Numbered from the stretch's first letter, positions 502 to 14,377 are shown. The stretch: 14,377 nucleotides of DNA from Candidatus Altarchaeum sp. (GCA_018260755.1 JAGTWP010000012.1:14711-29087); one strand, 5' to 3'. Made by a program: numbers and translations. The notes: generated by a model from the letters alone, not told the origin.

Positions 502-1413
502 ATGAACACAACACAAAAAATTGTAATTGCATCGGGAATTATCGGAATTTTACTTATTATCGGAATTTTGGCTTATTTTTTAATAAGTATGAGTTTGCCC
601 GGACTGTCAACAGGTGGGGTTGTTGCAGTAGTTCCGCTAAAAGGAGATATTGCAGGAGAATGTAGTAGTTATGGCGGTTGTATGGATCCAGCAAAATTTA
701 AAGAGATGATGGAAATAGCGGAAAATGACAATACAGTAAAAGTAATAATTATAAAGGTTGACAGCGGAGGTGGAGAGGTTGTGGCAAGCCGGGATTTGAT
801 GAAAATCGTGAAAAACGCAAAGAAACAAAAGCCGGTAATTGCATATATAAATGATATTGGTGCAAGCGGAGCGTATTATGTGGCATCGGCGAGCGATAAA
901 ATTGTCGCAAATGAATTCGCCTTCGTCGGAAGTATCGGTGTAAAATCAGAAATTGTCCATTATAAAGGACTTTTGGATAAATTGGGAATAAATATAACCG
1001 TTGTAATGAAGCCGGACAACAAGGATTTTGGAAGCCCGTACAGAGAAAATTTAACTGATGATGAAACAAATCTGATGGAAGATATCATCGATAAAATTTA
1101 TGATGCTTTTGTAAGTGATGTTGCTGAAAACAGAAATTTATCAAAGGAAAGAGTTAAGGAAATTTCCGAAGGACAGAGTATTTATCTTGGAAAGGATGCA
1201 AAAGAAAACGGACTGGTTGATTATGTAGGAGATATGGACGATGCGATAGATATTGCAGCAAGAGAAGCTGGAATCAAAGGAGATGTCGTTGTTCGCTACA
1301 TTGATACGGGACAAGAAAGTATTTTTGACAGGATGGCAATGAAAGTTGGATACGGTTTCGCAAAAGGGCTTGTTGAGATTGAGGGAAGTCAACAAAAGAT
1401 AGTAGCGGAGTAA
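502..1413 (+). CDS. sppA: Signal peptide peptidase SppA (S49 family, membrane-anchored)
   Basis: This 303-aa Ser/Lys protease of the ClpP/crotonase fold is expected to degrade cleaved signal peptides at the membrane. One N-terminal transmembrane helix spans about residues 7-30, leaving the catalytic domain outside the cytoplasm. The core shows the VDSGGG segment (87-92), the nucleophile Ser122 in GASGAYY, and the VGSIGV strand (142-147). Lys174 lies in NKDFGSP, 52 residues after Ser122. This is the same Ser-Lys spacing as in Bacillus subtilis SppA (147/199) and Thermococcus SppA (162/214). The length is typical of the short archaeal/Gram-positive form rather than the duplicated E. coli protein. 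The gene ends 34 bp from the convergent nob1 gene. The protein looks intact and active. Confidence 0.93.
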   Translation: MNTTQKIVIASGIIGILLIIGILAYFLISMSLPGLSTGGVVAVVPLKGDIAGECSSYGGCMDPAKFKEMMEIAENDNTVKVIIIKVDSGGGEVVASRDLMKIVKNAKKQKPVIAYINDIGASGAYYVASASDKIVANEFAFVGSIGVKSEIVHYKGLLDKLGINITVVMKPDNKDFGSPYRENLTDDETNLMEDIIDKIYDAFVSDVAENRNLSKERVKEISEGQSIYLGKDAKENGLVDYVGDMDDAIDIAAREAGIKGDVVVRYIDTGQESIFDRMAMKVGYGFAKGLVEIEGSQQKIVAE

Positions 1414-1447
1414 TAAAATTTAATTCCAGCAATAAATTTTACTAAAT

Positions 1448-1924
1448 TCAGACCTTTTTCTTAATAATTTCTGTTCCGCAGGCATCGCAAAATTTTTTAT
1501 AGGTTTTATAAACCTTTTCACATGCAGGACAAACATAGATAAATTTGTTTATTTTTTCATCCCCGGATTCAACTAGCCCTTCGTAAGGTATATTTAAAAT
1601 TTTAGCAATGTTCTGAATTGCAAAATCGCTTGTCATGATCTTTAAATTATATTCATAAGCCGCCGCTAAAATTTCAATATCGGTTTGTGAAAGATTGTTT
1701 GCAAGCTCTTTATTTATTTTTTCAATCTTCCTCTTTGAGTAATCAGAAGCATCTAATATCTTTAATTTTCCGTTCCTTAACAACCCTCTTACGACTTCTC
1801 TTAAAATTTCATCCTTTACTTCATTGAGGACACATGGTGTTATATAGCCCTCAAACATAATGTTTAGGGAATGTAAGATTACATTGGTGTCATAAATTCG
1901 GGTAAAATTTTTTGGTTCGGTCAA
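1448..1924 (-). CDS. nob1: rRNA maturation endonuclease Nob1 (PIN domain plus zinc ribbon)
   Basis: This 158-aa protein is PIN-like at residues 8-115 and carries a C-terminal zinc ribbon. Acidic residues expected to bind the catalytic metal are D12 (YDTNVIL), E35 (LNEVKDE), D82 (SQTDIEIL) and D100 (TSDFAIQ). The ribbon is C132/C135 and C146/C149. In archaea and eukaryotes Nob1 cleaves the 3' end of the pre-16S/18S rRNA (D site) during small-subunit maturation. Both length and order fit archaeal Nob1. The start is a TTG at 1924: an in-frame stop lies six codons upstream, no ATG intervenes, and the next Met (residue 23) would remove D12. It is transcribed away from the 97-aa gene on the same strand, with a 99-bp gap. 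Confidence 0.88.
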   Translation of the reverse strand: MTEPKNFTRIYDTNVILHSLNIMFEGYITPCVLNEVKDEILREVVRGLLRNGKLKILDASDYSKRKIEKINKELANNLSQTDIEILAAAYEYNLKIMTSDFAIQNIAKILNIPYEGLVESGDEKINKFIYVCPACEKVYKTYKKFCDACGTEIIKKKV

Positions 1925-2023
1925 TTTAAATTTGCTCGTTTATGTTTGTAGGAAAATTTGAGCTCAATAAATAAAATTTAAATTTAGCATAACTCTACTC
2001 TTGCATGTTCTCTTATTATTTTT

Positions 2024-2317
2024 TCATTCAATTAGTGTGCTTAATTTATCTTTAATTGCTTTCTCTATCTTATCAACATTATCTTCATTATTAAGTTTAA
2101 TTTTATAATAATCAGCAATTTTCTTTAAAATAGAATTGTCCATTTCTCTTAAGACCTTATTGGTTTTAATAGCATATAAAAGATAAAGTTTTTTATTTTG
2201 TTCTACCTCTTCTATGTGAACAAGAGGGGATAAATTTCCATATAACCACGCATCTTCTTCAACCATAAAAAGTGTTGGCAACTTAATGCTTGCTTCTTCA
2301 AAATTTATCCCGTTCAT
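2024..2317 (-). CDS. Hypothetical protein, 97 aa
   Basis: I do not recognise this protein. It is soluble and mixed in character. The N-terminal half (about 10-55) is beta-like with aromatic residues (DAWLYG, KLYLLYAI), and the C-terminal half is charged and helical (about 58-97, rich in Lys, Asp, Asn and Ile). No signal peptide, transmembrane segment or metal-binding cysteine is visible. The ATG at 2317 gives the full frame. The gene sits alone between nob1 and the 40-bp palindromic element, in the same direction as nob1, and could be co-transcribed with it. The frame is long for such AT-rich DNA and the amino-acid composition looks protein-like, so I think it is real, but no function can be assigned. 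Confidence 0.55.
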   Translation of the reverse strand: MNGINFEEASIKLPTLFMVEEDAWLYGNLSPLVHIEEVEQNKKLYLLYAIKTNKVLREMDNSILKKIADYYKIKLNNEDNVDKIEKAIKDKLSTLIE

Positions 2318-2633
2318 AGTAATCTGTGAATGGTGTTCTACGGTTATGGCTTTTTCGTCAAATTTTTTAAATGCATTAAAAAATATTTGAAATATTTTTT
2401 AAGATTGAAAATTTATCGCTCTTATGTTGATTTTCACTGATAGGGATAAACACATTGTTGAAGTTTTGCAAATTTTAAAATTCAAGCACAAATTCAAATA
2501 TAAATCCAAGTTCAAATACACTATAAAATGCAAAACACAAAAGTTCAATGATAATAGGTATATGAGCGAAATTTATTTATAACTTTTCAGTAAATTTTTG
2601 TATACTCTGAATAGTTACTTTTACTTTTAAATT
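2318..2633. other. Gene-poor gap of about 315 bp
   Basis: The gap between the 97-aa gene and the YhaM-like gene holds one copy of the 40-bp palindromic element (2375-2414). It also holds an imperfectly repetitive stretch at about 2470-2520 with several TTCAA/AAATTCAA words. A 52-codon frame on the plus strand (2424-2582) encodes a Lys/Phe-rich peptide that looks like a by-product of that repeat. I see no RNA gene here. Confidence 0.5.
2375..2414 (-). repeat. 40-bp palindromic element, copy A
   Basis: This 40-bp segment is the exact reverse complement of 10332-10371. Within it, 2376-2402 is a perfect palindrome with 13-base arms around a single central base (core ATATTTGAAATAT), followed by the tag AAGATTGAAAATTT. 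It lies in an intergenic gap upstream of the 97-aa gene. It is either a dispersed small repeat or a protein-binding or terminator site. No target-site duplication is seen. Confidence 0.75.
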
Positions 2634-3665
2634 TCATTTAACATCATCGTTCTTTTCAATATACACCCTTTTTATCGGGTATACATATTTTGTTTTTGTC
2701 TTGCCAGTATCATCATTTATTGCCCTTATATATTGCGTAACAGACGACGAAAAGTAATCCGCTGCATAGACAGCTGCCGCTTCAGGTATTGCCGGTTCAA
2801 TCACACTGCCTTGTTCCGGATTTCCATGGTGGCTAAGTATAATATGAAGTAATTTGTGTTTTAATATTTCGGGAAATTTTTCGTCTTCGTTTTTTGCTTC
2901 TTCATCAATTTTACCGATTTCTTTTATAAGCATTTCTTCGGCGATGGATATATGCCCCCGCAGTACATCTTCGGCATTGTCATCAAGCGGATAACCAGTC
3001 GCTTTGACGGTTATTGTTTCTATTTTTCCTATATCATGAAGGATTGCTCCTGCAATTGTTAAGTCCTTATCCATCCTATTTGGATGAATATCACATATCG
3101 CCTTGCATAATCGGACAACTTCAAGTGTGTGTTCCATTAATCCACCCACACATGCATGATGATACTTCATAGCCCCGGGCCATTTTCTAAATTTATCTAT
3201 AAAGTTCTTATCGTCAAAAAATTTTAACAGCAACTCTTTAAGAAATTTATTTTTTATTTCGTCTATTGTCTTTCTGAACTCTTTCTCCATTTCCTCTATA
3301 TTTTGGTTTGTAGAAGGAAGGAAGTCCGCAGCATTGTATTCGTTCTCTGCTGCTTTTCTTAATATACCTTCCGACTGATTTGTGTTTATTTCAGGTTCAT
3401 TGTTGAATAAATTTATATTGCCGGAAACAAATACAACATCACCGTTATTAAAGGAATTATAAATTTCTTCCACTTTTTCTTTTATTTCCCTGCCCCAAAA
3501 AGTTGCCTTAATATTTCCGGTTTTATCTGAAATATCAATTTTGAAGTAATATCCCGGTTTATTCTTGTATGACTGTAAGGTATCTTTTTTACTGACTGCA
3601 AAAAATCCTTCAACCTTGCTGCCTGCTTTTAAATTTTTTATGTCTCGGATAAAATTTTTCTCCAT
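2634..3665 (-). CDS. YhaM-like 3'-5' exoribonuclease (OB fold plus HD domain)
   Basis: This 343-aa protein has an N-terminal OB-fold nucleic-acid-binding domain (about 10-105, with strands around YYFKIDISDKTG and DVVFVSGNINLF). A helical linker precedes an HD metal-dependent hydrolase domain (about 165-320). HD ligands visible are H179 (LMEHT), H210-D211 (ILHDIGK), H238, H279/H280 (LSHHG) and D303. The order and length match the YhaM family, which degrades single-stranded RNA (and DNA) from the 3' end in Firmicutes. Homologues with this layout occur in some archaea. The start is the ATG at 3665, preceded by a 16-bp tandem-repeat tract separating it from purA on the same strand. The protein is intact. 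The substrate in this organism is inferred from the family. Confidence 0.82.
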   Translation of the reverse strand: MEKNFIRDIKNLKAGSKVEGFFAVSKKDTLQSYKNKPGYYFKIDISDKTGNIKATFWGREIKEKVEEIYNSFNNGDVVFVSGNINLFNNEPEINTNQSEGILRKAAENEYNAADFLPSTNQNIEEMEKEFRKTIDEIKNKFLKELLLKFFDDKNFIDKFRKWPGAMKYHHACVGGLMEHTLEVVRLCKAICDIHPNRMDKDLTIAGAILHDIGKIETITVKATGYPLDDNAEDVLRGHISIAEEMLIKEIGKIDEEAKNEDEKFPEILKHKLLHIILSHHGNPEQGSVIEPAIPEAAAVYAADYFSSSVTQYIRAINDDTGKTKTKYVYPIKRVYIEKNDDVK

Positions 3666-3706
3666 CGTTTAAAATTTATCTGATAATTTTATAATTTTAT
3701 AATTTT

Positions 3707-3786
3707 AACCGTATTTTAATTTAACCGTATTTTAATTTAACCGTATTTTAATTTAACCGTATTTTAATTTAACCGTATTTTAATTA
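3707..3786. repeat. 5 x 16-bp tandem repeat between purA and the YhaM-like gene
   Basis: The unit CCGTATTTTAATTTAA begins at 3709, 3725, 3741, 3757 and 3773, with the last copy incomplete. The array runs into the purA stop codon (TAA on the minus strand, 3784-3786) and forms most of the leader of the downstream YhaM-like gene. Copy number could alter promoter or leader length. Confidence 0.9.
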
Positions 3787-4896
3787 CCTTAAATCAATTG
3801 TATCGCTATATTCCCTTCCCGTTGAAATGAGCTTTACTTTAACACCGACTTCATTTTCAATGACTTTTATAAATTTCTTTGCATCTTCCGGCAAATCGTT
3901 AAATTTTCTAACTCCTGCACAATCAAATAAGCGGTCAATATTTGTTAATGCAAGCATTGTTGCGGAATTTATCTTTGCACTTCTTTTTGCCAGTTCAAAA
4001 TCAAAAGGAGCAACCCTTCTTGCCCTTCCAGTAACGGTTCCTTTTTCCTCAATTTTGGATAATTTTTCATAAATTTTTAAGTCATTAAACAGTTTGTTAA
4101 ATTTTTCATCTTTTTCATTATCTTTTTCATTATCTTTTTCATTATCTTTTTCATTATCTTTTTTATCTTTATTTATATTTGTTTTATTTGTTTCATTCCA
4201 AAACAATCCGTTCCCGACTCTTGTTGTGTATGCCTTTAAAACAACTATGACTTCATTAACACATTTAGGACCAACTCCTACATCGGAAAGCATAGCACTT
4301 GCCGTTGTATCTTTGGTTGTAACATAAGGATATGTTCCGTGATAAAGAGATAATCCGAAGCCCTGTGTTCCCTCAATTAAAATTTTCTTGTCTTCATCTA
4401 TTGCATCGTTCAGTTCCATTGCCACATCGCAAAGAAATTTATTTAATGCCGGAATGTCTTTTGCCAATTTTCCAAGCCGTTTTATCCGGTCTTCATTTGC
4501 AGGACCACATCCACTGCCTGTTGTCTGCACCTTTTCTCTTAGATTTGCATCGCCTTTGTCTCTTACTTTGTGTGTTTCCTTTATAATTCCGCACTGAAAA
4601 TCAACCTTAATTCGCTCTTTAACATTAAATTTATCAAATTTTGAAATTTCATCAAGAAAAACATCCGGATTAATAAGCACACCGGCACCGATATAAAGTT
4701 TTGTATTTTTGTTTAGAAAACCGGATGGAACCTGTCTTACTTTATATTCCTTTCCGTTATAAACAATTGTATGTCCCGCATTAGGTCCCACACCACCTCT
4801 CGCAATTATGTCATAATTGTCCTTTAGACACATATAGGAAATTATTTTTCCCTTCCCTTCATCACCGAATTGCCCTCCAACAACTATGTTGCACAT
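3784..4896 (-). CDS. purA: Adenylosuccinate synthetase PurA (archaeal short form with a repeat insert)
   Basis: This enzyme makes adenylosuccinate from IMP, aspartate and GTP, the first committed step to AMP. The N-terminal GTP-binding motif GDEGKGK is at 11-17 with catalytic D12. H42 lies in NAGHTIV, QTTGSGCGPA at 123-134, GTQGFGLSLYHG at 176-187, TTRVGNG at 224-230 and TGRARR at 289-294. It is 370 aa, close to archaeal enzymes and shorter than the roughly 430-aa bacterial form. A charged insert at about 234-268 contains NEKD repeated four times (248-263), encoded by a 12-bp microsatellite, where related enzymes would have a short loop. All catalytic motifs are intact, so the enzyme should be active. 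A possible 58-aa gene overlaps its start by 13 nt on the same strand. Confidence 0.95.
   Translation of the reverse strand: MCNIVVGGQFGDEGKGKIISYMCLKDNYDIIARGGVGPNAGHTIVYNGKEYKVRQVPSGFLNKNTKLYIGAGVLINPDVFLDEISKFDKFNVKERIKVDFQCGIIKETHKVRDKGDANLREKVQTTGSGCGPANEDRIKRLGKLAKDIPALNKFLCDVAMELNDAIDEDKKILIEGTQGFGLSLYHGTYPYVTTKDTTASAMLSDVGVGPKCVNEVIVVLKAYTTRVGNGLFWNETNKTNINKDKKDNEKDNEKDNEKDNEKDEKFNKLFNDLKIYEKLSKIEEKGTVTGRARRVAPFDFELAKRSAKINSATMLALTNIDRLFDCAGVRKFNDLPEDAKKFIKVIENEVGVKVKLISTGREYSDTIDLR
4107..4166. repeat. 12-bp in-frame microsatellite inside purA
   Basis: The unit TCTTTTTCATTA (plus strand) is repeated about four times perfectly, with a degenerate edge near 4155-4166. It encodes NEKD repeats. 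A unit length divisible by three keeps purA in frame if copy number changes. Confidence 0.9.
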
Positions 4897-5060
4897 TTTA
4901 AGATTGAATTAAATTTTATATTTTTTTCTTTGAAAAACAGAACAAGTAATGTTGTAATAAGCAAGGTGGAAGTCCCGAATAAATTTCCTATTACAAAAAT
5001 ACCAATCAAGGTAGTAAAGATAACGAATGTTTCCAATAAAATTTTTTTGGTTGTATCCAT
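4884..5060 (-). CDS. Possible 58-aa membrane protein overlapping purA
   Basis: An ATG at 5060 opens a 58-codon minus-strand frame that ends with TAG 13 nt inside purA. The product is hydrophobic over about residues 8-44: two membrane-spanning stretches (TFVIFTTLIGIFVIG and TSTLLITTLLVLFF) around a short GNLFG turn, then a basic tail (KEKNIKFNSILK). This is a credible small two-helix membrane protein, and the overlap could couple its translation to purA. Against it, AT-rich DNA gives hydrophobic frames by chance, the protein is short, and no family is recognised. It lies downstream of the dnaK terminator-like tract, so it would start its own transcription unit with purA. Confidence 0.38.
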   Translation of the reverse strand: MDTTKKILLETFVIFTTLIGIFVIGNLFGTSTLLITTLLVLFFKEKNIKFNSILKCAT

Positions 5061-5106
5061 TTATGAAAATCAGAAAGAATTAGATTTTAAAGAAATTTTA
5101 TTAAAG

Positions 5107-5140
5107 AAATAAAAAATAAGAAAAAGAAAAAAGAAAAAAT
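5107..5140 (-). terminator. T-rich terminator tract after dnaK
   Basis: On the minus strand this tract is almost pure T, interrupted by single C or A bases, beginning about 54 nt after the dnaK stop. It fits archaeal oligo-T termination and separates the chaperone transcript from purA. Confidence 0.45.
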
Positions 5141-5193
5141 TAAAATTTAAAATTTATTCTGCCTTATTGCAGGTCTCTTACAACCGCAAAGCA

Positions 5194-7113
5194 TTATTTC
5201 TTCACTTCATAATCTGCATCATAAACCTTACCATCTTTGTCTTTTCCCTGTTCACCTTCTGCTGTGTTTTGCTCTGTATTTTTCTTACCTTGTTGGTTGT
5301 TGCTTTCCTGATTTTGTTGCTTTTCCTGACCTGCTCCACCTGCCTGTGATTGCTGCTGTTGAGATGCCTGCTGATATACTGCTGTTCCTACCTGCTGCAA
5401 GATATTTTTTAAATTTTCAAATTTTGTCTTTATCATTTCAATATCCTTATTTTCCATTGCTTCTTTTAATTCCTTGACTGCTTCATTGAGCTTATTCTTA
5501 TTTTCTTCGCTGATTTTACCTTCAAGATCTTTGCTCAACTTTTCCGACTGGTATATAACTGATTCTGCATCATTCATCAATTCCGTTTCTTCCTTTTTCT
5601 TTTTATCTTCTTCTGCAAACCTCTCGGCATCTTTCTTCATGCGCTCAATTTGTTCCTTGCTTAATTTTGTTGATGCACTTATTGTAATTCCCGCTTCTTT
5701 TCCAGTTCCTAAATCCTTTGCTTTGACATTTAATATTCCGTTAGCATCAATATCATAGGTGATTTCTATTTGCGGAACCCCCCTCGGAGCAGGCGGAAGT
5801 CCTGTAAGATTGAACATACCTAATGAAGTATTATCTTTGGCAAGAGGTCTTTCACCTTGTGTAATGTGGATTGTAACAGCATTCTGGAAGTCGGCTGCCG
5901 TAGTAAATATCTGTGATTTTTTTGTCGGAATTGTTGTATTTGCCGGAATTAAAGGAGTTGCTATTCCGCCTAATGTCTCGGTTGATAAGGTTAAAGGAGT
6001 TACATCTAACAATAAAATATCATGAACTTCTCCGGATAATACCGCACCCTGAACTGCCGCTCCGATCGCAACACATTCCATCGGATCTACTCCTCCTTCC
6101 GCTTTCTTTCCGAAAATATCTTCAATAAATTTCTGAACGATGGGCATTCTGGTAGGTCCTCCTACTAATATAACCTTTTCAATACCCTCTTTTTTTATAT
6201 TGGCTTTCTCTAATGCAATCTCTACTGGTTTTCTGCATCTTTCAACTATCGGATTTACAAGTTCTTCAACTTTTGCTCGTGTTAATTTTGTAACAAGATG
6301 TTTCGGCCCTGTTTGTGTCGCAGTTATGTAAGGTAAATTTATCTCGGTCTCAAGAGTTGTTGAAAGTTCTATTTTTGCTTTTTCCACACCTTCTTTCAAA
6401 CGAATAAATGCGGTTTTGTCATTTCTTAAGTCAACACCTTCTTTGGTCTTGAAATCATGAATGAGGTAGTTAATAATTGCATTATCCATATCTGTTCCAC
6501 CTAACTGAGTATCTCCTGATGTCCCTTTAACTTCAAAAACACCTCCTCCGAATTCCATAATTGTAACATCAAGTGTTCCTCCCCCAAAATCAAAAACCAA
6601 AATTTTTGCCTCTTTTTGGGCCTTATCTAATCCGTAAGCCAGCGAGGCAGCTGTCGGTTCATTAACGATTCTGACAACTTCTAATCCTGCAATTTCACCA
6701 GCATCCTTTGTTGCCTGTCTCTGATTGTCATCAAAATATGCCGGAACAGTAATTACCGCTTTATGTATTGGCTCACCCAAAAATTTCTCAGAGTCCTTTT
6801 TTATCTTTTGCAATATATCCGCTGAAATTTGCTGCGGCGTATATTCCTTCCCGTAAATTTTGTATTTGTAATTAGTTCCCATCTTACGTTTTGCCGCATA
6901 AACGGTTCCTTCCGGGTTCATTGTTGCCTGCCTCTTTGCCGGCTCTCCGACAAGCAATTGTCCGTCCTTTGTGAATGCAACATAACTTGGAAATGCCTTT
7001 CCGTACATACTTACTCCTTCCGCACTTGGAATCACTGTTGGTTTTCCGCCGACCATCACCGCTGCCGCCGAATTGCTTGTTCCCAAATCAATCCCGATTA
7101 TTTTCTCTGCCAT
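5194..7113 (-). CDS. dnaK: Molecular chaperone DnaK (Hsp70)
   Basis: This full-length 639-aa cytosolic ATP-dependent Hsp70 cycles with GrpE and a J-protein. The nucleotide-binding domain shows GIDLGTSNS (7-15), [11 protein letters not shown] (151-161), [11 protein letters not shown] (174-184) and VGGPTRMP (317-324). The interdomain linker [10 protein letters not shown] is at 365-374, followed by the substrate-binding beta domain (about 380-490) and the helical lid. The region after [10 protein letters not shown] is short, so it lacks the roughly 24-residue insertion of proteobacterial DnaK and resembles Gram-positive/archaeal forms. The tail (about 581-625) is Gln/Asn/Gly-rich and low-complexity, and the protein ends in DADYEVKK. 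grpE lies 141 bp upstream on the same strand. No dnaJ is in the window. Confidence 0.97.
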
Positions 7114-7143
7114 TTTTAGATATTTTAAATTTATTAAATTTTT

Positions 7144-7228
7144 ATTTATTTAAATTTTATTATTCGGCTCAATTTTAATGTAAATTTTTTAATGTAAATT
7201 TCATAAATTTATTTAAATTTTATTATTC
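7144..7228. repeat. 22-bp direct repeat between grpE and dnaK
   Basis: The same 22 bases occur at 7144-7165 and 7207-7228, offset by 63 bp, with two AATGTAAATTT-like words between them. The pair fills the dnaK leader and may duplicate promoter elements. It could equally be chance enrichment in very AT-rich DNA, although 22 exact bases is long for that. Confidence 0.6.
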
Positions 7229-7254
7229 TTTGAAATTTGCTCATTATTTATTCA

Positions 7255-8031
7255 TTATTTGCTTTTTGATTTCGCAACCTTCACTTTTGAAGATCTTAAC
7301 AACATATCTTTGTACTTGTATCCCTTCTGAAATTCCTCAATTATCATACCTTCCGAAAATTTATCTGTTTCTTCCCACATAATCGCCTCGTGGTAATAAG
7401 GATCAAAATTTTTCCCGACAGATGAAATTTCACTTAATCCCTGTTCTCTCAAAACGTAAATTAATCCTTCGTAAATTTTTTTCGTTCCTTCAAATATTTC
7501 CCTTGATTCCACACTTAAATTTTTGTCTTTGTATGATGCAATAGCAGCGTTATAGGTGTCAAGTAAAGGAAGTAAATTGAGCATAACATCCCTTGCCCCG
7601 TACTCTTTAATTTCCCCCTCTTTTCTCTCCCATATTTTTCGTGCATTATCAAAATCGGCAATTGTTCTTAAACACCTATCATATCTGCTTTTCAGGTCAT
7701 CAATATCTTTGTTTTTTTTGTTTATTTCTCCCTCTAATTTTTCCCTCTCTTTTTGCTCTTTGTGTAATTTTTCTTCTATATTTTCTAATTCTTTCAGTTT
7801 TTCTTTGTGTTTTAACTTTGCGTTTATCGTTAAAATTTTGTCCTTCAAATCGGCAAATATGTTTTCCATATCTATTTTTGGTGAATTGAAATGTAAGGTT
7901 TCATCTGCAATTTTGACAATGATTTCGTTTTCTGCTGGCATGACTGAAATTTCTGGAACGCTTACTTGGACATTGTCAATTTTTATTATGAAATTTTCAT
8001 CATCCTGTGAAACATGCGAAATATAACTCAT
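7255..8031 (-). CDS. grpE: Nucleotide exchange factor GrpE with N-terminal extension
   Basis: This 258-aa protein is the DnaK partner that releases ADP. The canonical part starts with a long coiled coil (about 75-140, including FDNARK near 127-132). It ends with the beta-wing head: GKNFDPYYHEAIM (206-218) and IIEEFQKGYKYKDMLLRSSKVKV (split here as 230-241 and 242-252). GrpE is usually about 170-210 aa. Here residues 1-70 form an extra, apparently beta-rich module (FIIKIDNVQVSV, NEIIVKIADETLHF) that I do not recognise. The start is the ATG at 8031. An internal start that skipped the extension would need Met55, which is conceivable. The neighbours are dnaK downstream and the thermosome gene upstream, all on one strand. 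Confidence 0.93.
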   Translation of the reverse strand: MSYISHVSQDDENFIIKIDNVQVSVPEISVMPAENEIIVKIADETLHFNSPKIDMENIFADLKDKILTINAKLKHKEKLKELENIEEKLHKEQKEREKLEGEINKKNKDIDDLKSRYDRCLRTIADFDNARKIWERKEGEIKEYGARDVMLNLLPLLDTYNAAIASYKDKNLSVESREIFEGTKKIYEGLIYVLREQGLSEISSVGKNFDPYYHEAIMWEETDKFSEGMIIEEFQKGYKYKDMLLRSSKVKVAKSKSK

Positions 8032-8071
8032 TCTATTTAAATTTTTCTGATAAAATTGCCTAATAAATGTA

Positions 8072-8100
8072 TAAAAATAAAAAATAAAAAAAAGATAAAA
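8072..8100 (-). terminator. T-rich terminator tract after the thermosome gene
   Basis: Read on the minus strand this is a run of T interrupted by single A or C bases, 50-80 nt after the thermosome stop and before grpE. It fits oligo-T termination. Confidence 0.45.
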
Positions 8101-8150
8101 TTTGAAAAATTCTAAAATTTATTCGTCAAGTCAAGGAATATATGTTTTAT

Positions 8151-9821
8151 TTATTCCATTCCCATTCCTCCCATTCCACCCATGCCTCCCATTCCTCCGC
8201 TATATCCTCCTCCCGGAGGCCTTGGTGGCATGGATTTCTTTGCCGATGCAACAACATCATCTATCCTTAAAATCATTTCAACCGCTTCTGTTGCAGAGGC
8301 AATTGCCTGTGTTTTTATCTTAAGCGGTTCAATAACATTCTGTTCATACATATTTGCTATTTTTTTGTTCATCACATCAACACCAAAATCAATTCCTTCT
8401 TTTCCTTTTGCATGCTTTTCTTTTAATGAAACAATAGTATCTATAGCATCCATTCCCGCACTCTCTGCAAGCGTTTTCGGAATTATCTCTATTGCCTCTG
8501 CAAATGCGGATATTGCGAGTTGCTCTCTGCCTCCGACTGTTTTGGCATAATTCTCTAATTGTACAGATAATTCCGTTTCAAGTGCTCCTGCACCTATCAC
8601 ATACTTTCCGATTTCAAGGGCACAGGCTACGCCTCCGACAGCATCTTTTACCGCTCTTTCAAGTTCATCAACAACATGCTGTGTTCCCCCTCTTAAAAGT
8701 AAAGCAACCGCCTTTGGATTTTTACATTCTTTAATTAAAACCAGTTCATCACCTGCAATTTTAACCTGTTCAATCACTCCTGCAGAGCCCAAATCACCGG
8801 AAGATAGTTCCTTTATTGAACTTACAACCTTTGCATCCGTTGCCTTTGATAATTTTTCCATATCTGATTTTTTAACCCTTCTGACTGCCAGTATTTTCTC
8901 CTTTGCCAGATAATATTGTGCAACATCATCAATACCTTTCTGACAGAAAAGAACATTTGCTCCGCTTTTTTTAACCATATCAACCATGTTTTTTAAGGCA
9001 TTTTCTTCCTGTTCCAGGAACTTTTGCATCTGTGACGGATCCTTTATTGAAATTTTTGCATCTGTCTCGGTTTTTTTTACTTCAAGAGCGGCATCCAATA
9101 ATGCAATCTTTGCATTTTTTATTGTTTTTGGCATCTCAATATTTAATGTTTCTTTTTCAATAATCACCCCTTCAATCAATTCACTTTCAATCATACTTTT
9201 TCCAATCTTCTTGACTATTTGAATATCATCCTGATCTACTTTTACATTTCCGTTTTCCAGGACTGCAACCTTTGTTACGGCAGTTACGCAGAGATTTTTT
9301 AATTCTGTTTTTGCCGCCTCAGAGCCCTTCCCGGTCATTGCAGTTGTTGCTATTTTTTCAAGAATCTCTTTATCTTTCAATGTAACTTTTCCGGCAATTT
9401 TTTCCAATATCTTTTGTGCCTGTGCTGCTGCCATTGTATAGCCCCTGATTATTACCGTCGGGTGAATTCCGTTATTAAGAAGTTTCTCTGACTGATCTAA
9501 CAATGACGATGCCAAAACAACCACTGTTGTTGTTCCGTCTCCGACTTCTTTATCCTGTGTTTTTGCTATTTCAACCATCATCTTTGCTGCCGGATGTTCA
9601 ACCTTCATATTATCAACAATAGTTGCTCCGTCATTTGTTATAGTTATATCCCCTAAATCATCCACAAGCATTTTGTCCATTCCTTTCGGCCCTAATGTCG
9701 TTCTTACTACCTCACCGACAAATTTTGCTGCTGATATATTTGCTTTCATAGCATCTCTTCCCGTACTTCTAAAAGCCCCTTCCGGCAATATAAGCACCGG
9801 TTGCCCCATCTGTCCTGCCAT
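8151..9821 (-). CDS. ths: Thermosome subunit (group II chaperonin)
   Basis: This 556-aa subunit belongs to the archaeal double-ring chaperonin with a built-in lid, which folds proteins in the cytosol in an ATP-dependent manner. The equatorial ATP site shows [11 protein letters not shown] (41-51), NDGATIV (63-69) and GDGTTT (94-99). The apical/helical-protrusion region and the returning intermediate domain follow in order. The C-terminus (about 535-556) is the typical Gly-Met tail with GGM repeats. Length and start ([15 protein letters not shown]) match archaeal thermosomes. The window does not show whether this is the alpha or beta subunit or the only one. It is transcribed in the same direction as grpE and dnaK, forming a chaperone cluster. 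The leader contains a 4 x 17-bp repeat. Confidence 0.96.
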
Positions 9822-9834
9822 TTTATATATTTTT

Positions 9835-9902
9835 AATTGTATTTATTTTTTAATTGTATTTATTTTTTAATTGTATTTATTTTTTAATTGTATTTATTTT
9901 TT
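9835..9902. repeat. 4 x 17-bp tandem repeat in the thermosome leader
   Basis: The unit AATTGTATTTATTTTTT starts at 9835, 9852, 9869 and 9886. The array begins 14 bp upstream of the thermosome ATG, so it lies in the 5' leader or core promoter. Change in copy number would alter leader length. Confidence 0.9.
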
Positions 9903-10185
9903 AGTTATCTATCTTTTATTAAATTTTTAAATTTTGTTAATAAAATTTTGTTAATAAATTAGATATTATATATTAAATTCTTGTTTTAGTAATTAGTTTG
10001 AGTGTATATAAATTTAAATTTTATCTAAATAAATAACAAATAAACAGATGGCATAAACAAATAACAAAAACAGGTGCATCAAAATGAGAATGATAGAAAA
10101 ACCACCATGTAATAAAATTTTTCACCATGGTTAGAAAACTTTCGGTTTTGAAAACAACCTCGCTTCAAATTATTTAACAATAAAA
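9903..10185. other. Intergenic region between the thermosome gene and tRNA-Thr
   Basis: I see no convincing gene. The region holds a candidate TATA element (10005-10012) and an imperfect direct duplication (10031-10054 and 10059-10079, sharing AAATAACAAA, ACAG and GCAT). It also holds a hairpin with 6-bp arms ACCATG/CATGGT (about 10112-10131) and a 5-bp hairpin AAAAC/GTTTT just after it. Two tiny frames exist: 16 codons from 10084 (plus) and 35 hydrophobic codons at 10021-10128 (minus). Either strand could make a small RNA, but no family motif is recognised. Confidence 0.4.
10005..10012 (-). promoter_or_regulatory. Candidate TATA box for the thermosome gene
   Basis: On the minus strand the region reads TTTATATA, an exact match to the archaeal TATA consensus TTTAWATA. 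Transcription would begin near 9980, giving a leader of about 160 nt that includes the 17-bp repeats. The site is nearly symmetric and could also serve the plus strand. Confidence 0.33.
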
Positions 10186-10258
10186 AGCCCCAGATGAGGA
10201 TTGAACTCACGAACCTACCGCTTACAAGGCGGTCGCTCTGCCACTGAGCTACTGAGGC
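10186..10258 (-). tRNA. tRNA-Thr (UGU anticodon)
   Basis: Read on the minus strand it folds as a cloverleaf. The acceptor GCCUCAG pairs with CUGGGGC (one U-G). The D stem is GCUC/GAGC, the anticodon stem ACCGC/GCGGU and the loop CUUGUAA, giving anticodon UGU. The T arm is GUGAG-UUCAAUC-CUCAU. The discriminator is U and CCA is not encoded. A TTTAATA element about 26 bp upstream is part of a 16-bp duplication. Confidence 0.93.
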
Positions 10259-10281
10259 ATCGGATGATTTTTTTTAAATTT

Positions 10282-10313
10282 ATTAAATCTGTTTAATATT
10301 AAATCTGTTTAAT
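10282..10313. repeat. 2 x 16-bp tandem repeat at the tRNA-Thr promoter
   Basis: ATTAAATCTGTTTAAT occurs at 10282-10297 and again at 10298-10313. On the minus strand each copy carries TTTAAT. The proximal one is centred about 26 nt upstream of the tRNA-Thr 5' end, the expected TATA position, so the duplication copies a TATA-like element. Confidence 0.85.
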
Positions 10314-10331
10314 AATTAAAATTCCTTTGAG

Positions 10332-10371
10332 AAATTTTCAATCTTAAAAAATATTTCAAATATTTTTTAAT
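10332..10371 (+). repeat. 40-bp palindromic element, copy B
   Basis: This is the exact reverse complement of 2375-2414, with the same 27-bp perfect palindrome and the same flanking tag (here AAATTTTCAATCTT on the left). It lies between tRNA-Thr and tRNA-Pro, about 8 kb from copy A. A half-similar word, ATTTCAAATATTT, lies just upstream of tRNA-Leu (about 10638-10650). Confidence 0.75.
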
Positions 10372-10438
10372 AATTAAATTTTTAAAATTAAATTTAAAAT
10401 TTTCCAAAATTTCCAAAGTTAAGATATTGATTTCAATT

Positions 10439-10511
10439 TGGGGCCGCTGAGATTTGAACTCAGGTCGCTAGCACCCCAAGCTAGTAGGATACCAAGCTAC
10501 CCTACGGCCCC
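10439..10511 (-). tRNA. tRNA-Pro (GGG anticodon)
   Basis: On the minus strand the acceptor GGGGCCG pairs perfectly with CGGCCCC. The anticodon stem CUAGC/GCUAG holds the loop UUGGGGU, giving anticodon GGG. The T arm is CUGAG-UUCAAAU-CUCAG. The discriminator is A and no CCA is encoded. Confidence 0.94.
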
Positions 10512-10530
10512 ATTGGTATTTTGATTTGAT

Positions 10531-10540
10531 ATTTTAAATA
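10531..10540 (-). promoter_or_regulatory. TATA box of tRNA-Pro
   Basis: On the minus strand this reads TATTTAAAAT, centred about 25 nt upstream of the tRNA-Pro 5' end, the canonical archaeal TATA distance if transcription starts at or near the mature end. Confidence 0.42.
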
Positions 10541-10548
10541 AAAAATTT

Positions 10549-10632
10549 TGCGAGGGAAGGGACTCGAACCCTCGAAGGCTTACGCACACAGGAGCCTCAG
10601 TCCTGCCCCTTTGACCACTTGGGAACCCCCGC
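10549..10632 (-). tRNA. tRNA-Leu (GAG anticodon)
   Basis: This is a class II tRNA of 84 nt. The acceptor GCGGGGG pairs with CCCUCGC (one G-U). The anticodon stem CAGGA/UCCUG holds the loop CUGAGGC, giving anticodon GAG. A long variable arm (about GUGCGUAAGCC) and a T arm with GGUUCGAGUCCC follow. The discriminator is A and CCA is not encoded. Confidence 0.94.
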
Positions 10633-10678
10633 TTAAAATTTCAAATATTTAAATTTCAAAAGATAATTAGATTTTCAA

Positions 10679-10752
10679 TTAATAATTTTGGTAAATACAT
10701 TAACAAATACATTAATAATTTTGGTAAATACATTAACAAATACATTAATAAT
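10679..10752. repeat. 2 x 33-bp tandem repeat upstream of sepF
   Basis: A 33-bp unit occurs at 10679-10711 and 10712-10744, with a partial third copy to about 10752. Inside each unit AAATACATTAA occurs twice, so the array is nested. It sits between divergently transcribed tRNA-Leu and sepF. Confidence 0.88.
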
Positions 10753-10833
10753 ATTGCTAAAAATTAATTATTTTGTAATCTTTGTTAAATTTATTATAGA
10801 TAATAAAATTTAAAAAATTTAAATATATTAAAA

Positions 10834-11223
10834 ATGGGTTTTTTAGATAGTATATTTGGAACAGGAGAAAAAAAGGATATTGCGCCAGTGAGACCACAAT
10901 CGGTAGATATAGATGAAATTATAAAAGGACTGGAAAAAACAGGGGTAAATATTGGCGGTGAAGTGGGAAAAGGGCATATGGTAAAATCGCTGCCTTTAAC
11001 AAATGAGATTGATGCCGAAGCGGGAAGAACAGAGCTGATGGAGGGAAATATAGTAGTGTTTAGAATAGATAAGGAAATTTTATACCCTTTAAATAAAGAA
11101 TACTCTCTTTCAATTCTTAGCAGGGTAAAGCAAATTGCAGATGCCTTACATGGAGATGTAAAGCAAATTGCAGAGGATAAATTATTAGTTGTACCTACCG
11201 GAATTAAGATTATGAAGGAGTAA
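10834..11223 (+). CDS. sepF: Cell division protein SepF (archaeal type)
   Basis: This 129-aa protein begins with MGFLDSIFG, a short amphipathic helix of the kind that anchors SepF to the membrane. A flexible linker follows (about 12-45), then the conserved domain (about 48-127) with TELMEGNIVVFRID, the SILSRVKQIADALHGDVKQI helix and a final LLVVPTGIKI strand. SepF tethers FtsZ filaments to the membrane in FtsZ-using archaea, so it implies FtsZ-based division here. The start at 10834 preserves the membrane helix, and no Shine-Dalgarno is visible, so the message may be nearly leaderless. The next gene begins 6 nt after the stop and uses the AAGGAG at 11215-11220 inside the sepF end as its ribosome site, so the two form an operon. 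Confidence 0.83.
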   Translation: MGFLDSIFGTGEKKDIAPVRPQSVDIDEIIKGLEKTGVNIGGEVGKGHMVKSLPLTNEIDAEAGRTELMEGNIVVFRIDKEILYPLNKEYSLSILSRVKQIADALHGDVKQIAEDKLLVVPTGIKIMKE

Positions 11224-11229
11224 AAAACA

Positions 11230-12195
11230 ATGGATAAATTTTTGGAAATTTCGGATGAAAAAATTTCGGACTTATTTAAGAAATCCGCCAAAAATTTAAA
11301 TTTTTCCTTTTTGAACGAGGATCTAATAGAATTGTGTGTGTATGATATGACCGACGGAACAAGAACATCAACAAATTTAAAGGGCAGTGACGCATACATT
11401 GACGGCGGTTTATTTGCATTACGATTTACGAATGTGTTTAGGGCATTGGGAGCAAAAAATATATATCTGAATGTTATTCACACAGGCCATAAGAAAAGAG
11501 TAAATTATAAAGATATTTATGAGGCGATGCTCAAACTTGTTAATGTTTATCTGAATTATGCGAACAAATACGATGCAAAATTAAAATTTCTGGGAAATTT
11601 AGACGAGAGGATTGATTCGGGAGATAGTAAATTAAACCTTGCGGAAATTTTAAAGGGGCTTGAAAATAAAACTGAAAACAATAAAGGCCTTACAATACAT
11701 ATTTTGATAAATTTTTCAACAAGGTGGCTTGCAAAGCACGAAGAAATTTATGACAATCTTCCGGAAGTTAACGTTGTTGTTAGGCATACTAAGGGCTACA
11801 TAAACGGAGATATGCAGATTTTTGGCAGAATGGATAATTACTCGCTTGTATATGCACAAAACGGTTCATCATCAACAAACTGGAGCGACAGACAAATCGC
11901 TGAGCTTGCTGCAATATGTCTTAAAAGTTACATCCTGAACAGAGGAACTCATCTTACAAAGACATATACAGACGGAGAAAACGAATATGTGAGGGGGAAA
12001 AGAGAAATAGAACTTTCATTAATTCATAAGGACTTTTATGATGAAAAGGAAAACAAAGGGGAAAATAAAGATAAAGAAAACAAAGAAAATAATGAAAACA
12101 AAGAAAATAATGAAAACAAAGAAAATAATGAAAACAAATTTAAAAAGAGAGCGATAATATTTTCATCTGTCGGGCCGGAAATTTATGAATTTTAG
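11230..12195 (+). CDS. Divergent cis-prenyltransferase (undecaprenyl-diphosphate-synthase-like)
   Basis: This 321-aa protein has sequence landmarks in the order of the UPP synthase family. TDGTR (41-45) carries the aspartate equivalent to the pyrophosphate-binding Asp. A GG-LFALR helix follows, then LGAKNIYLNVI (74-83), HTGHKKR in the place of the STENW-type loop, KFLGNL (119-124), and PEVNVVVRH (178-186) for the PELDLLIRTGGE region. It is clearly divergent, so a noncatalytic or altered-specificity role is possible. The family normally makes polyprenyl diphosphate carriers for surface glycans. Residues 271-303 are a Lys/Glu/Asn low-complexity insert with KENNEN repeated three times. The stop is TAG, followed two codons later by TAA. 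A good Shine-Dalgarno (AAGGAG) lies 9 nt upstream. Its 3' part is duplicated at 13940. Confidence 0.6.
   Translation: MDKFLEISDEKISDLFKKSAKNLNFSFLNEDLIELCVYDMTDGTRTSTNLKGSDAYIDGGLFALRFTNVFRALGAKNIYLNVIHTGHKKRVNYKDIYEAMLKLVNVYLNYANKYDAKLKFLGNLDERIDSGDSKLNLAEILKGLENKTENNKGLTIHILINFSTRWLAKHEEIYDNLPEVNVVVRHTKGYINGDMQIFGRMDNYSLVYAQNGSSSTNWSDRQIAELAAICLKSYILNRGTHLTKTYTDGENEYVRGKREIELSLIHKDFYDEKENKGENKDKENKENNENKENNENKENNENKFKKRAIIFSSVGPEIYEF
11701..12128 (+). repeat. Left copy of a 428-bp or longer direct duplication
   Basis: From the codon for Ile158 of the cis-prenyltransferase-like gene to 12128, the sequence matches 13940-14367 with a constant offset of 2239 and no mismatch seen by eye. Divergence at the right end occurs inside the 18-bp microsatellite, so the true duplication may extend further, past the gene end. 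Confidence 0.93.
12082..12135. repeat. 3 x 18-bp in-frame microsatellite
   Basis: The unit AAAGAAAATAATGAAAAC starts at 12082, 12100 and 12118 and encodes KENNEN three times. The right-hand copy of the gene differs in this tract (two clean units, then an altered third). Confidence 0.9.
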
Positions 12196-12233
12196 ATTTA
12201 ATTTTAGATTTCTTATTTTTTGCTAAATATAAT

Positions 12234-12515
12234 ATGGAAAATACAAAAATATCAGATAAAAAAATAAAAGAACAATATAATCTGATAAAAGAATATCATG
12301 AAAAGTATTTGAAAAAATACGGCGTTAAAATGCCCAAGTTATACGGCAGAAACGGTAATTTTACAATGAACGCCTTAGTACTTGTTTATTTATCTCTCAG
12401 ATACCCTAAAACAAGAATAATCTCAAAAACAGAATTAACGATTTTTATAAGAAATTTTTACCCAGAAGTTAACGATGTCCAACAGGCAAGACACTTGGGA
12501 GCTCAAGATGGCTAG
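12234..12515 (+). pseudogene. HNH restriction endonuclease, N-terminal part (ended by in-frame TAG)
   Basis: This 93-codon frame is the start of a protein that continues in the same frame after one TAG (12513-12515). It is a helical, basic region (ISDKKIKEQYNLIKEYHEKY) leading to a DNA-binding-like segment and the DVQQARHLGAQDG motif that immediately precedes the stop. The sequence after the stop (WIVVGGRDN) reads on naturally, so the pair is one endonuclease gene of about 248 codons. A TGG-to-TAG change at the interrupted codon is the simplest origin. On its own this fragment lacks the HNH domain and should not cleave DNA. It begins 38 bp after the cis-prenyltransferase-like gene. The alternative is UAG read-through. 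Confidence 0.75.
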
Positions 12516-12524
12516 TGGATTGTA

Positions 12525-12980
12525 GTGGGGGGCAGAGATAACATAGTAGCGAAAATTGATAAAGGTTCTTATCAACTTTATACCTTAGAACAACCATATC
12601 CCGATTTTAAGAAAGGACATAGAATTGTAGATACTGGCGATTGGGAAAAATTAAAAGAGCAATATGGTTTTAGGTGCGCGACCTGTGGCTCTCGTGAAGG
12701 AGAACCTAATTTTCATTGGCGGGGAACAAAAACAATACTTCAAAAAGCACATAAAGACCCAAATAAACCTCTTGTAGCAGGCAATATAATTCCCCAATGT
12801 CAAAAATGCAATAGGGCGGATAGGAACAGATGGGTTTATGACGAGAAAGGAAGGGTAATAAAATTAGCAGATGCTTCTTTTGTTAGAAATTTTGATAAAG
12901 ATGTGATAGTAAAAATTTACAGAATACTTTATAAAGAATTTAAAGGAAAAAATCCCAAGGATATAAAAAATGAAAAATAA
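12525..12980 (+). pseudogene. HNH restriction endonuclease, catalytic C-terminal part
   Basis: This part continues the previous frame; 12525 is only the first GTG after the TAG. The HNH nuclease core is visible. Two zinc knuckles, CATC and CQKC, bracket LQKAHKDPNKP and AGNIIPQ, giving the H...N...N order of the ββα-metal fold, with NRADRNRW after it. The two CxxC pairs would bind a structural zinc. Such proteins pair with DNA methyltransferases in type II restriction-modification systems, and the next gene is one. The last 11 nt overlap the methyltransferase start, implying coupled translation. An independent product from the GTG would lack the N-terminal region and has no obvious ribosome site, so activity is doubtful unless UAG is suppressed. 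Confidence 0.78.
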
Positions 12981-13908
12981 TGACTTTATTAATAAGATAA
13001 TTACAGGAGATGCATTAGAAGTGTTAGCAAAAATTGAAGATGATTCAATAGATGTTGTTCTAACAGACCCGCCTTATTTTTTAGATAAACTTGATAACAA
13101 TTGGAAATATACAGAAGTTCCTGACAAAAAATATTGTGTGGTGGTGAAGTCATTACCTGCCGGAATGAAATTTGACAGACAACAAGGTATAAATCTTTAT
13201 AATTGGTTTTTAAATGTATCTAAGGAATTATACCGTGTCTTAAAAAATGGTGGTTTTTTCTTCTCTTTCTCCAGTCCGAGATTGTATCATAGAATGGCAA
13301 GCGCAGTTGATGATGCTGGCTTTATGATTAGAGATTGTTTTGTATGGATTTACACTCAAAACCAGCCAAAAGCAATGAGTTTAAATCATTTTATAGACAA
13401 ATTAAATATCAACAAATCAGCAAAAGAAAAATTAAAGAAAAAACTTTCTAGCTGGAAGACGCCACAAATTAAGTCGTGTTTTGAGCCGATTATTGTAGCT
13501 CAAAAGCCACCGGATAAAACATTCTTGGAAAATATAATAAACAACGAGGTTGGACTTTTTAATACAGATATAAAAGTTGGGGACAATATGTATCCTTCAA
13601 ACATTCTGACAATTGATCATATCAGCGAAATTATGGATAAAACTTTTTTAGTGGGAAAACCGACAAAAAAAGAAAAAAAGGACTATAATTTTCATATGAC
13701 TGTAAAACCATTAGCAATATGTGAACATCTTATTAAACTTTCTGCTTTTTCAAAAGATGCAGTAATATTAGACCCGTTCGTTGGTAGTGGAACTACTGCT
13801 GTGGCAGCAAAAAATGCATGTAAAAACTTTATCGGAATTGATAGTAATCCGGAATATACAAAAATTGCTTTGGAACGATTAGATAATTTACAGCACAAAT
13901 TATTTTAA
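12970..13908 (+). CDS. Type II DNA methyltransferase (beta class, N6-adenine or N4-cytosine)
   Basis: This 312-aa SAM-dependent amino-methyltransferase protects host DNA against the adjacent HNH endonuclease. The catalytic motif IV is DPPY (33-36, TDPPYFLDKLDNNW). A variable region follows (about 130-240, target recognition), then motif X/I: HMTVKP (242-247) and LDPFVGSGTT (267-276). Catalytic motif before SAM motif is the beta-class order. DPPY favours N6-adenine, but N4-cytosine cannot be excluded. Motifs and length look intact, so it could still modify DNA even if the endonuclease is dead. The ATG at 12970 overlaps the endonuclease stop by 11 nt. The 31 bp after its stop lead directly into the duplicated host-gene fragment. 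Confidence 0.93.
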   Translation: MKNNDFINKIITGDALEVLAKIEDDSIDVVLTDPPYFLDKLDNNWKYTEVPDKKYCVVVKSLPAGMKFDRQQGINLYNWFLNVSKELYRVLKNGGFFFSFSSPRLYHRMASAVDDAGFMIRDCFVWIYTQNQPKAMSLNHFIDKLNINKSAKEKLKKKLSSWKTPQIKSCFEPIIVAQKPPDKTFLENIINNEVGLFNTDIKVGDNMYPSNILTIDHISEIMDKTFLVGKPTKKEKKDYNFHMTVKPLAICEHLIKLSAFSKDAVILDPFVGSGTTAVAAKNACKNFIGIDSNPEYTKIALERLDNLQHKLF

Positions 13909-13930
13909 TAATGCCTGATTACAAATATAA

Positions 13931-14377
13931 ATGTTAGACATTTTGATAAATTTTTCAACAAGGTGGCTTGCAAAGCACGAAGAAATTTATGACAATCTTC
14001 CGGAAGTTAACGTTGTTGTTAGGCATACTAAGGGCTACATAAACGGAGATATGCAGATTTTTGGCAGAATGGATAATTACTCGCTTGTATATGCACAAAA
14101 CGGTTCATCATCAACAAACTGGAGCGACAGACAAATCGCTGAGCTTGCTGCAATATGTCTTAAAAGTTACATCCTGAACAGAGGAACTCATCTTACAAAG
14201 ACATATACAGACGGAGAAAACGAATATGTGAGGGGGAAAAGAGAAATAGAACTTTCATTAATTCATAAGGACTTTTATGATGAAAAGGAAAACAAAGGGG
14301 AAAATAAAGATAAAGAAAACAAAGAAAATAATGAAAACAAAGAAAATAATGAAAACAAAGAAAATAAGAAAATAATG
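13931..14377 (+). pseudogene. 5'-truncated duplicate of the cis-prenyltransferase-like gene (runs off the window)
   Basis: This frame of 149 codons opens with ATG TTA GAC and then is identical to the upstream gene from Ile158 onward, in the same reading frame. It stays open to the window end. It lacks the first 157 residues, including the conserved DGTR aspartate, so it cannot be an active synthase by itself. Its ATG comes from the cassette side of the junction, not from the duplicated sequence. Downstream, in the KENNEN microsatellite, it diverges from the left copy after 14367. In an insertion-with-duplication model this is the reconstructed right-hand target copy. Confidence 0.8.
13940..14367 (+). 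repeat. Right copy of the 428-bp or longer direct duplication
   Basis: It matches 11701-12128 at an offset of 2239, in direct orientation, with the restriction-modification genes between the copies. The exact left edge is the A at 13940, since the preceding base differs (C here, T in the left copy). Confidence 0.93.

What the first reader, a model, noticed from the sequence alone, without database searches (positions are those of the whole stretch)
11701..14377. Restriction-modification cassette flanked by a long direct duplication of its host gene
Seen: 11701-12128 and 13940-14367 are the same sequence in direct orientation, and only the HNH endonuclease and methyltransferase genes (plus short flanks and the first gene's end) lie between. 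Known: some bacterial type II R-M systems insert with target duplications of hundreds of bases, unlike transposons. Inference: this archaeal cassette inserted at the 3' half of a cis-prenyltransferase-like gene and kept an intact copy on the left. The direct repeats would allow precise excision or tandem amplification. The near-identity suggests recent insertion.
Basis: partly seen in the sequence, partly recalled or inferred. Interest (0 to 1): 0.75.

Follow-up and report, generated by a model that had tools for sequence, protein, structure and literature searches.

The report
Defence cassette behind half-copied host gene
In an uncultured groundwater archaeon, a two-gene DNA-cutting/DNA-marking module sits just behind a housekeeping gene and is followed by a second, partial copy of that gene; the same layout recurs in its relatives with other defence genes, which suggests that these archaea take up defence cassettes by an unusual, imprecise route.

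Summary
The repeat is real: 11701-12128 and 13940-14367 are identical (428/428). The window stops at a contig end, but another contig of the same genome (C27) begins with the rest of the gene's 3' end, so the right copy probably runs to the native stop. The genome is a Ca. Altarchaeum-type archaeon (Altiarchaeales).

"Recent insertion" is not supported. A congener (~87% DNA identity) has the same cassette at the same left junction, with ordinary species-level divergence, but has no right copy in the 1 kb that remains of its contig. The R-M insertion therefore predates the species split; the duplication is younger, or is kept identical by gene conversion. The endonuclease gene has an in-frame TAG (TGG in relatives), so only the methylase is intact.

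The anatomy is not R-M-specific. Other loci in two congeners show: intact host gene, cargo starting at its stop codon, then a 90-250 bp (up to 700 bp) partial copy of the gene. Cargo includes an unrelated R-M, a NACHT-TPR protein and an AAA-DUF4143 ATPase. Two loci have empty sites in congeners. I favour one-sided-homology (or circle) integration over simple target duplication: a new archaeal, cargo-independent variant of the known "insertion with long target duplication".

The parts
10834..11223 (+). sepF, gene upstream of the host gene
   Evidence: Pfam SepF E 1.6e-6; syntenic in G002 and G003
11230..12195 (+). host gene, cis-prenyltransferase-like (weak uppS match); intact left copy, stop TAG
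   Evidence: 85-89% aa relatives in congeners G002, G003; uppS E 0.013
11701..12128 (+). left copy of the perfect direct repeat (3' half of host gene); with contig C27 the repeat extends to about 12194 (GGG/GGA difference and different tandem-repeat number)
   Evidence: C27
12068..12139 (+). 18-bp tandem repeat GAAAATAATGAAAACAAA coding for the host protein's tail; the contig break falls in the right-hand copy of it
12196..12233 (+). intergenic stretch shared with G003 (87%) and partly with the cassette-free G002: native host-gene downstream plus the cassette's left end
12234..12980 (+). HNH-type (CxxC...H...CxxC) endonuclease gene, interrupted by in-frame TAG at 12513-12515 where relatives have TGG (Trp)
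12970..13908 (+). beta-class DNA methyltransferase gene (TDPPYF then DPFVGSGTT), intact
   Evidence: PF01555 E 4.7e-32; dN/dS 0.06 vs G003
13909..13939 (+). 31-bp spacer between methylase stop and right copy, not found elsewhere in the genus (first 25 bp searched, up to 3 mismatches)
13940..14367 (+). right copy of the repeat: 3' half of the host gene without its 5' part; continues to the contig end and probably into C27

Best explanation
The repeat is the footprint of a defence cassette (HNH endonuclease plus methylase) joined to the end of a housekeeping gene, and it is one case of a recurrent, cargo-independent process in this archaeal genus. Most likely mechanism: the cassette arrives on DNA that already carries the 3' end of the host gene (linear DNA from a relative, or a circle). 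Homologous recombination in the host gene rebuilds an intact copy on the left. The cassette's other end (or the circle's closing joint) is fused illegitimately, sometimes at ~10 bp of microhomology, inside the host gene. This leaves host gene intact, cassette, partial 3' copy, old downstream DNA, with a duplication whose length varies by case. The left joint is then inherited or transferred with the cassette, the right joint varies, and gene conversion can keep the two copies alike. Shown: anatomy, recurrence, empty sites at two loci, shared left joint in two species. Inferred: the recombination route, the link to C27, and that the right copy here is younger than the insertion.
For: Repeat 428/428; right copy's remainder heads contig C27. 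Same cassette and left joint in G003 with neighbourhood-level divergence (85.6% vs 86.6%), no right copy there. G002 has the host gene with no cassette. A second cassette copy in G003 (contig C30) sits behind 82 bp of a radical-SAM gene's 3' end and is followed by a longer 3' half of that gene. Same anatomy with other cargo in sampled stretches: apgM + AAA_14/DUF4143; RecJ-like + MTase/Tsp45I-DpnII-like REase; PHP + NACHT-TPR; mevalonate kinase + aspartyl protease; CODH-like gene + small ORFs. Empty sites: PHP gene joined to its downstream genes in G000, G001, G002; apgM followed directly by the next ATPase in G003. RecJ right joint in G003/G001 shows microhomology AAATTTAAAC with the cargo's own end; G000 shares the cargo but has only 68 bp of right copy. 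YdeI-5'/radical-SAM-3' joints share AAGGAAATTT.
Against: No circle, donor molecule or reads were seen. Only one clean empty site shows the right copy joined to native downstream DNA (PHP). At the UPPS locus the DNA after the right copy (C27) is not the downstream DNA of UPPS in G002 or G003. L116 and L104 duplicate a 5' part rather than a 3' end. The RecJ right-joint difference in G000 could be a deletion rather than an independent joint. The UPPS right joint shows no clear microhomology.
Confidence: 0.55

Rival explanations
1. Classical 'insertion with long target duplication' as described for bacterial type II R-M systems: one de novo insertion made both joints and both copies at once; later the right copy was lost in G003 and kept identical by gene conversion in G000.
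For: Identical anatomy; empty sites at the PHP and apgM loci; conversion-like similarity of copies at the RecJ-like locus (94.5% within G003 vs 77.5-84% between species, 8 shared derived sites); literature precedent (PMC3874152 and PMC3031569).
Against: Needs loss plus perfect homogenisation at UPPS; the right joint differs between species while the left joint is shared at two loci; cargo is not restricted to R-M.
Confidence: 0.28
2. Tandem duplication of a [UPPS 3' half + R-M] unit (possibly still amplified), with the last R-M copy lost or collapsed in assembly.
For: The joint 13939/13940 is of tandem-duplication type; both contig ends lie in a repeat, so extra units could be hidden.
Against: C27 shows one right end going straight to unique DNA; the same single-cargo anatomy recurs elsewhere with empty sites.
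Confidence: 0.09
3. Assembly artefact or strain mixture: a cassette-bearing strain's contig wrongly joined to a cassette-free strain's host gene at a contig end.
For: Metagenome assembly, contig end, odd 10-bp discrepancy in the last bases.
Against: The joint carries a 31-bp spacer found nowhere else; the same anatomy occurs in an independent assembly (record titles give ~3000x coverage) with copies that differ by 5-8%, which assemblers do not invent.
Confidence: 0.08

Closest known systems
Insertion of type II R-M systems with long, variable target duplication (Nobusato et al. 2000; Furuta et al. 2010; summarised in PMC3874152 and PMC3031569)
   Same: R-M gene pair without its own recombinase, flanked by a direct duplication of host sequence of hundreds of bp
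   Different: Described from comparisons of bacterial genomes, with duplications of the order of 100 bp. Here archaeal, several unrelated defence cargos, older insertion with a possibly younger or variable right joint, left joint always at the host stop codon in the 3'-end cases. The primary papers were not readable here.
Homology-facilitated illegitimate recombination, one homologous and one illegitimate end (PMC3240628), and its use in stacking gene arrays (PMC5361080); both seen as search listings and abstracts only
   Same: One homologous and one illegitimate joint, truncated gene pieces left beside new cargo, stacked arrays like G003 C30
   Different: Shown experimentally in bacteria; here inferred from sequence in an uncultured archaeon; yields a duplication rather than a replacement
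HpyAII locus of Helicobacter pylori (Aras 2001, cited in PMC7494987)
   Same: R-M genes between direct repeats (80 bp) that allow deletion and re-acquisition
   Different: Repeats here are a 428+ bp piece of a housekeeping gene; excision not shown
Deletion-coupled insertions of Haloquadratum walsbyi (PMC3119063)
   Same: Archaeal insertions of foreign DNA at sites without conserved sequence, by an undescribed mechanism; short repeats linked to deletions
   Different: Those are coupled to loss of host DNA, these to its duplication

Membership tests
Insertion with long target duplication (R-M type) | Direct duplication of host sequence (about 100 bp or more) on both sides of the R-M genes | tested here: met
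   428/428 repeat
Insertion with long target duplication (R-M type) | Relative with single-copy, uninterrupted target (empty site) | tested here: inconclusive
   G002 has the host gene without cassette but other downstream DNA; clean empty sites only at the PHP and apgM loci
Insertion with long target duplication (R-M type) | Both copies created in the same event as the insertion | tested here: inconclusive
   Insertion older than the species split but copies identical and right copy absent from G003; gene conversion could reconcile this
Functional type II R-M system | Intact endonuclease and methylase genes | tested here: not met
   In-frame TAG at 12513-12515 in the HNH gene; methylase intact
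Type II beta-class DNA methyltransferase | N6_N4_Mtase domain with DPPY before FxGxG | tested here: met
   PF01555 E 4.7e-32; TDPPYF at residues 32-37, DPFVGSGTT at 268-276
Transposon or integrase-borne element | Own recombinase gene and defined ends | tested here: not met
   Only HNH and methylase genes between the copies; no inverted repeats at the ends
One-sided-homology (HFIR) or circle integration | One homologous and one illegitimate joint demonstrated | not testable with these tools
   No donor, reads or culture; only indirect support

The most novel reading that the evidence does not exclude
Altarchaeum has a general, integron-like but recombinase-free (or in-trans) route that repeatedly captures defence cassettes behind housekeeping genes, leaves long partial copies of the gene ends, and lets cassettes be stacked, exchanged and deleted by recombination between those copies.
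Probability: 0.25. Interest if true: 0.75.

Novelty: new variant of a known kind. Interest (0 to 1): 0.52.

Why it matters
How small defence modules that lack a transposase or integrase move is an open question. Here are several independent cassettes in one archaeal genus with a common footprint, empty sites in relatives and a shared left joint. That makes the question testable: the footprint predicts donors with host-gene ends, variable right joints and excision by the repeats. It also warns that near-identical flanking repeats are not a reliable clock for insertion age.

Tried and rejected
HNH relatives outside the genus (Patescibacteria, Planctomycetota, Gammaproteobacteria, Nitrospirae and others) show no long direct repeats spanning the cassette (one 38-bp repeat in L088), so the footprint belongs to the host genus, not to the R-M family. 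One viral contig has a distant HNH relative (42%) without the methylase. The 31-bp spacer has no second occurrence. TAG read-through in the HNH gene was considered and rejected: apgM in the same genome uses TAG as its ordinary stop and relatives have TGG at this site. An in-frame ATG fused to the right copy (13932) was considered as a made gene and left as a probable coincidence. The control genome G012 (270 kb) had no spaced repeat of 90 bp or more at 1 kb or more, against 9 non-preselected cases in about 0.8 Mb of G000/G003; suggestive only (Poisson P about 0.05). The primary paper Furuta 2010 is not held.

Full report
WHAT IS THERE. The window is the right-hand 14.4 kb of contig C45 of a 1.32-Mb, 78-contig archaeal genome (G000); its last base is the contig's last base. 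11701-12128 and 13940-14367 are identical over all 428 positions, 2239 bp apart, in direct orientation. The left copy is the 3' half of an intact 321-codon gene behind sepF; its cis-prenyltransferase assignment is weak (uppS E 0.013). Between the copies lie an HNH-type endonuclease gene (12234-12980), a beta-class DNA methyltransferase gene (12970-13908; PF01555 E 4.7e-32) and a 31-bp spacer found nowhere else in the genus.

THE RIGHT END. C45 breaks inside an 18-bp tandem repeat of the right copy. Contig C27 begins in the same tandem repeat, carries the remaining end of the gene with stop TAA (98% to 12068-12194) and then different DNA. The most economical reading is that C45 continues into C27, so the right copy is a gene half reaching the native stop. 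Over the compared part the copies differ only in the number of tandem units, one G/A change and the stop codon. The link itself is inferred.

THE ENDONUCLEASE IS BROKEN. The HNH frame has one in-frame TAG (12513-12515) where relatives in G003 (both copies) read TGG and G001 also has Trp. The same genome uses TAG as an ordinary stop (apgM). The methylase is intact and conserved (dN/dS 0.06 against G003). So the present locus is probably a lone methylase with a damaged endonuclease gene.

AGE OF THE INSERTION. The relatives carry names from the Altiarchaeales: G003's contigs match 'Candidatus Altarchaeum sp. HURL_140' and G001's match 'Altiarchaeales archaeon A3'. G003 C17 has sepF, the host gene, HNH and methylase in the same order with the same left joint. 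Identity across the R-M is 85.6%, like that of the neighbouring genes (86.6%), though parts of the HNH gene are mosaic (71-97%). In the 1,045 bp left of that contig there is no right copy. G002 has the host gene with no cassette and other genes downstream. So the cassette joined this gene before the two species split, and the 100% identical copies (host gene 86% between the species) cannot simply date the insertion. Either the right copy is younger or gene conversion keeps the copies alike. The RecJ-like locus supports conversion as a possibility: its two copies in G003 are 94.5% alike, against 77.5-84% to the other species, with 8 shared derived sites, although the same right joint is also seen in G001.

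NOT ONLY R-M. A second copy of the same R-M in G003 (contig C30) sits behind the last 82 bp of a radical-SAM gene and is followed by a longer 3' half of that gene. The contig is an array in which several different cargos are each bracketed by pieces of the radical-SAM 3' end and a YdeI-type 5' end, joined at AAGGAAATTT. I then sampled 418 kb of G000 and 430 kb of G003 for spaced direct repeats. The anatomy 'intact host gene, cargo, partial 3' copy' recurs: apgM with an AAA_14/DUF4143 ATPase (143 bp, 99%); a RecJ-like gene with a methylase and a Tsp45I/DpnII-like endonuclease (200 bp, 94.5%); a PHP-domain gene with a NACHT-TPR protein (161 bp, 100%); mevalonate kinase with an aspartyl-protease-like gene (91 bp); a CODH-like gene with small ORFs (194 bp). 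Host-gene names here are my reading of the translations, except where Pfam is cited for cargo. Two further loci duplicate a 5' part: a 693-bp repeat around an ImmA-type, a DUF4411 and a PLD-type gene, and a hydrogenase-subunit-like gene (HdrC-like, my reading) around a probable transposase. A control genome of the same class (270 kb) had no spaced repeat of 90 bp or more; with this sample size that is suggestive, not proof.

EMPTY SITES. At the PHP locus G000, G001 and G002 have the gene joined directly to the downstream genes; in G003 the cargo starts at the stop codon and the right copy continues into that same downstream DNA. At apgM, G003 lacks cargo and duplication and has the next ATPase directly behind apgM. 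These two loci show insertion with long target duplication in this genus directly. In G003's assembly one copy at the PHP and at the RecJ-like locus contains a 100-N scaffold gap with a 55-bp overlap, so those copies were joined by read pairs.

MECHANISM. Shown: anatomy, recurrence, empty sites, shared left joint in two species. Inferred: the cassette comes with a piece of host-gene end, recombines by homology on that side, and is closed illegitimately on the other side inside the gene, from linear DNA or as a circle. Support: the left joint sits at or within ~36 bp after the host stop at the UPPS, PHP, apgM and RecJ-like loci; the right joint lies inside the gene at variable depth; microhomology at the RecJ right joint (AAATTTAAAC) and the YdeI/radical-SAM joint; the right joint differs between species where the left one is shared (UPPS; RecJ in G000, where an alternative is deletion). 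The rival is the classical one-event long target duplication known for bacterial R-M systems (PMC3874152, PMC3031569), with later loss and conversion. The two can be told apart by joint variation within a population.

VERDICT. Observation confirmed; interpretation partly supported. I class it as a new variant of a known kind: archaeal, cargo-independent, and older than its repeats suggest.

Noticed in passing
L049 (G003:C30) 1138-11550: Array of at least five cargo blocks bracketed by partial radical-SAM 3' ends and YdeI-type 5' ends, with repeated microhomology joints; looks like stacked alleles at one hotspot.
   Followed up: partly
L088, L089, L090, L092 vs window 12234-13908: The same HNH/methylase pair occurs in Patescibacteria, a Planctomycetota and other bacterial MAGs (HNH up to 82% identical to G003's), i.e. 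transfer between domains; the HNH gene is mosaic between Altarchaeum copies.
   Followed up: partly
L078 (G003:C42) 177-290: A ~53-bp end of the same host gene sits between two 28-bp direct repeats, on another contig than the intact gene; possibly a relic of a lost right copy.
   Followed up: no
L116 (G000:C33) 14460-19165: 693-bp, 100% identical direct repeat of a gene's 5' half around an ImmA-type/DUF4411/PLD cargo.
   Followed up: partly
L128 13549-14001: 453-bp element with three further near-identical (100%) copies in G003 (C104, C111, C17), and a ~130-bp dispersed repeat with tens of copies in the same genome.
   Followed up: no
window 3688-3785, 4096-4179, 9813-9931, 10678-10743: Several short tandem arrays (16, 12, 17 and 33 bp units), one of them (12 bp) inside the adenylosuccinate-synthase-like gene.
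   Followed up: no
window 2405-2574: 171-bp dispersed repeat, 93% identical to C45:7779-7948 in inverted orientation.
   Followed up: no
window 13932-14377: An ATG in the spacer is in frame with the right-hand host-gene half, so a 3'-half protein could be made.
   Followed up: no
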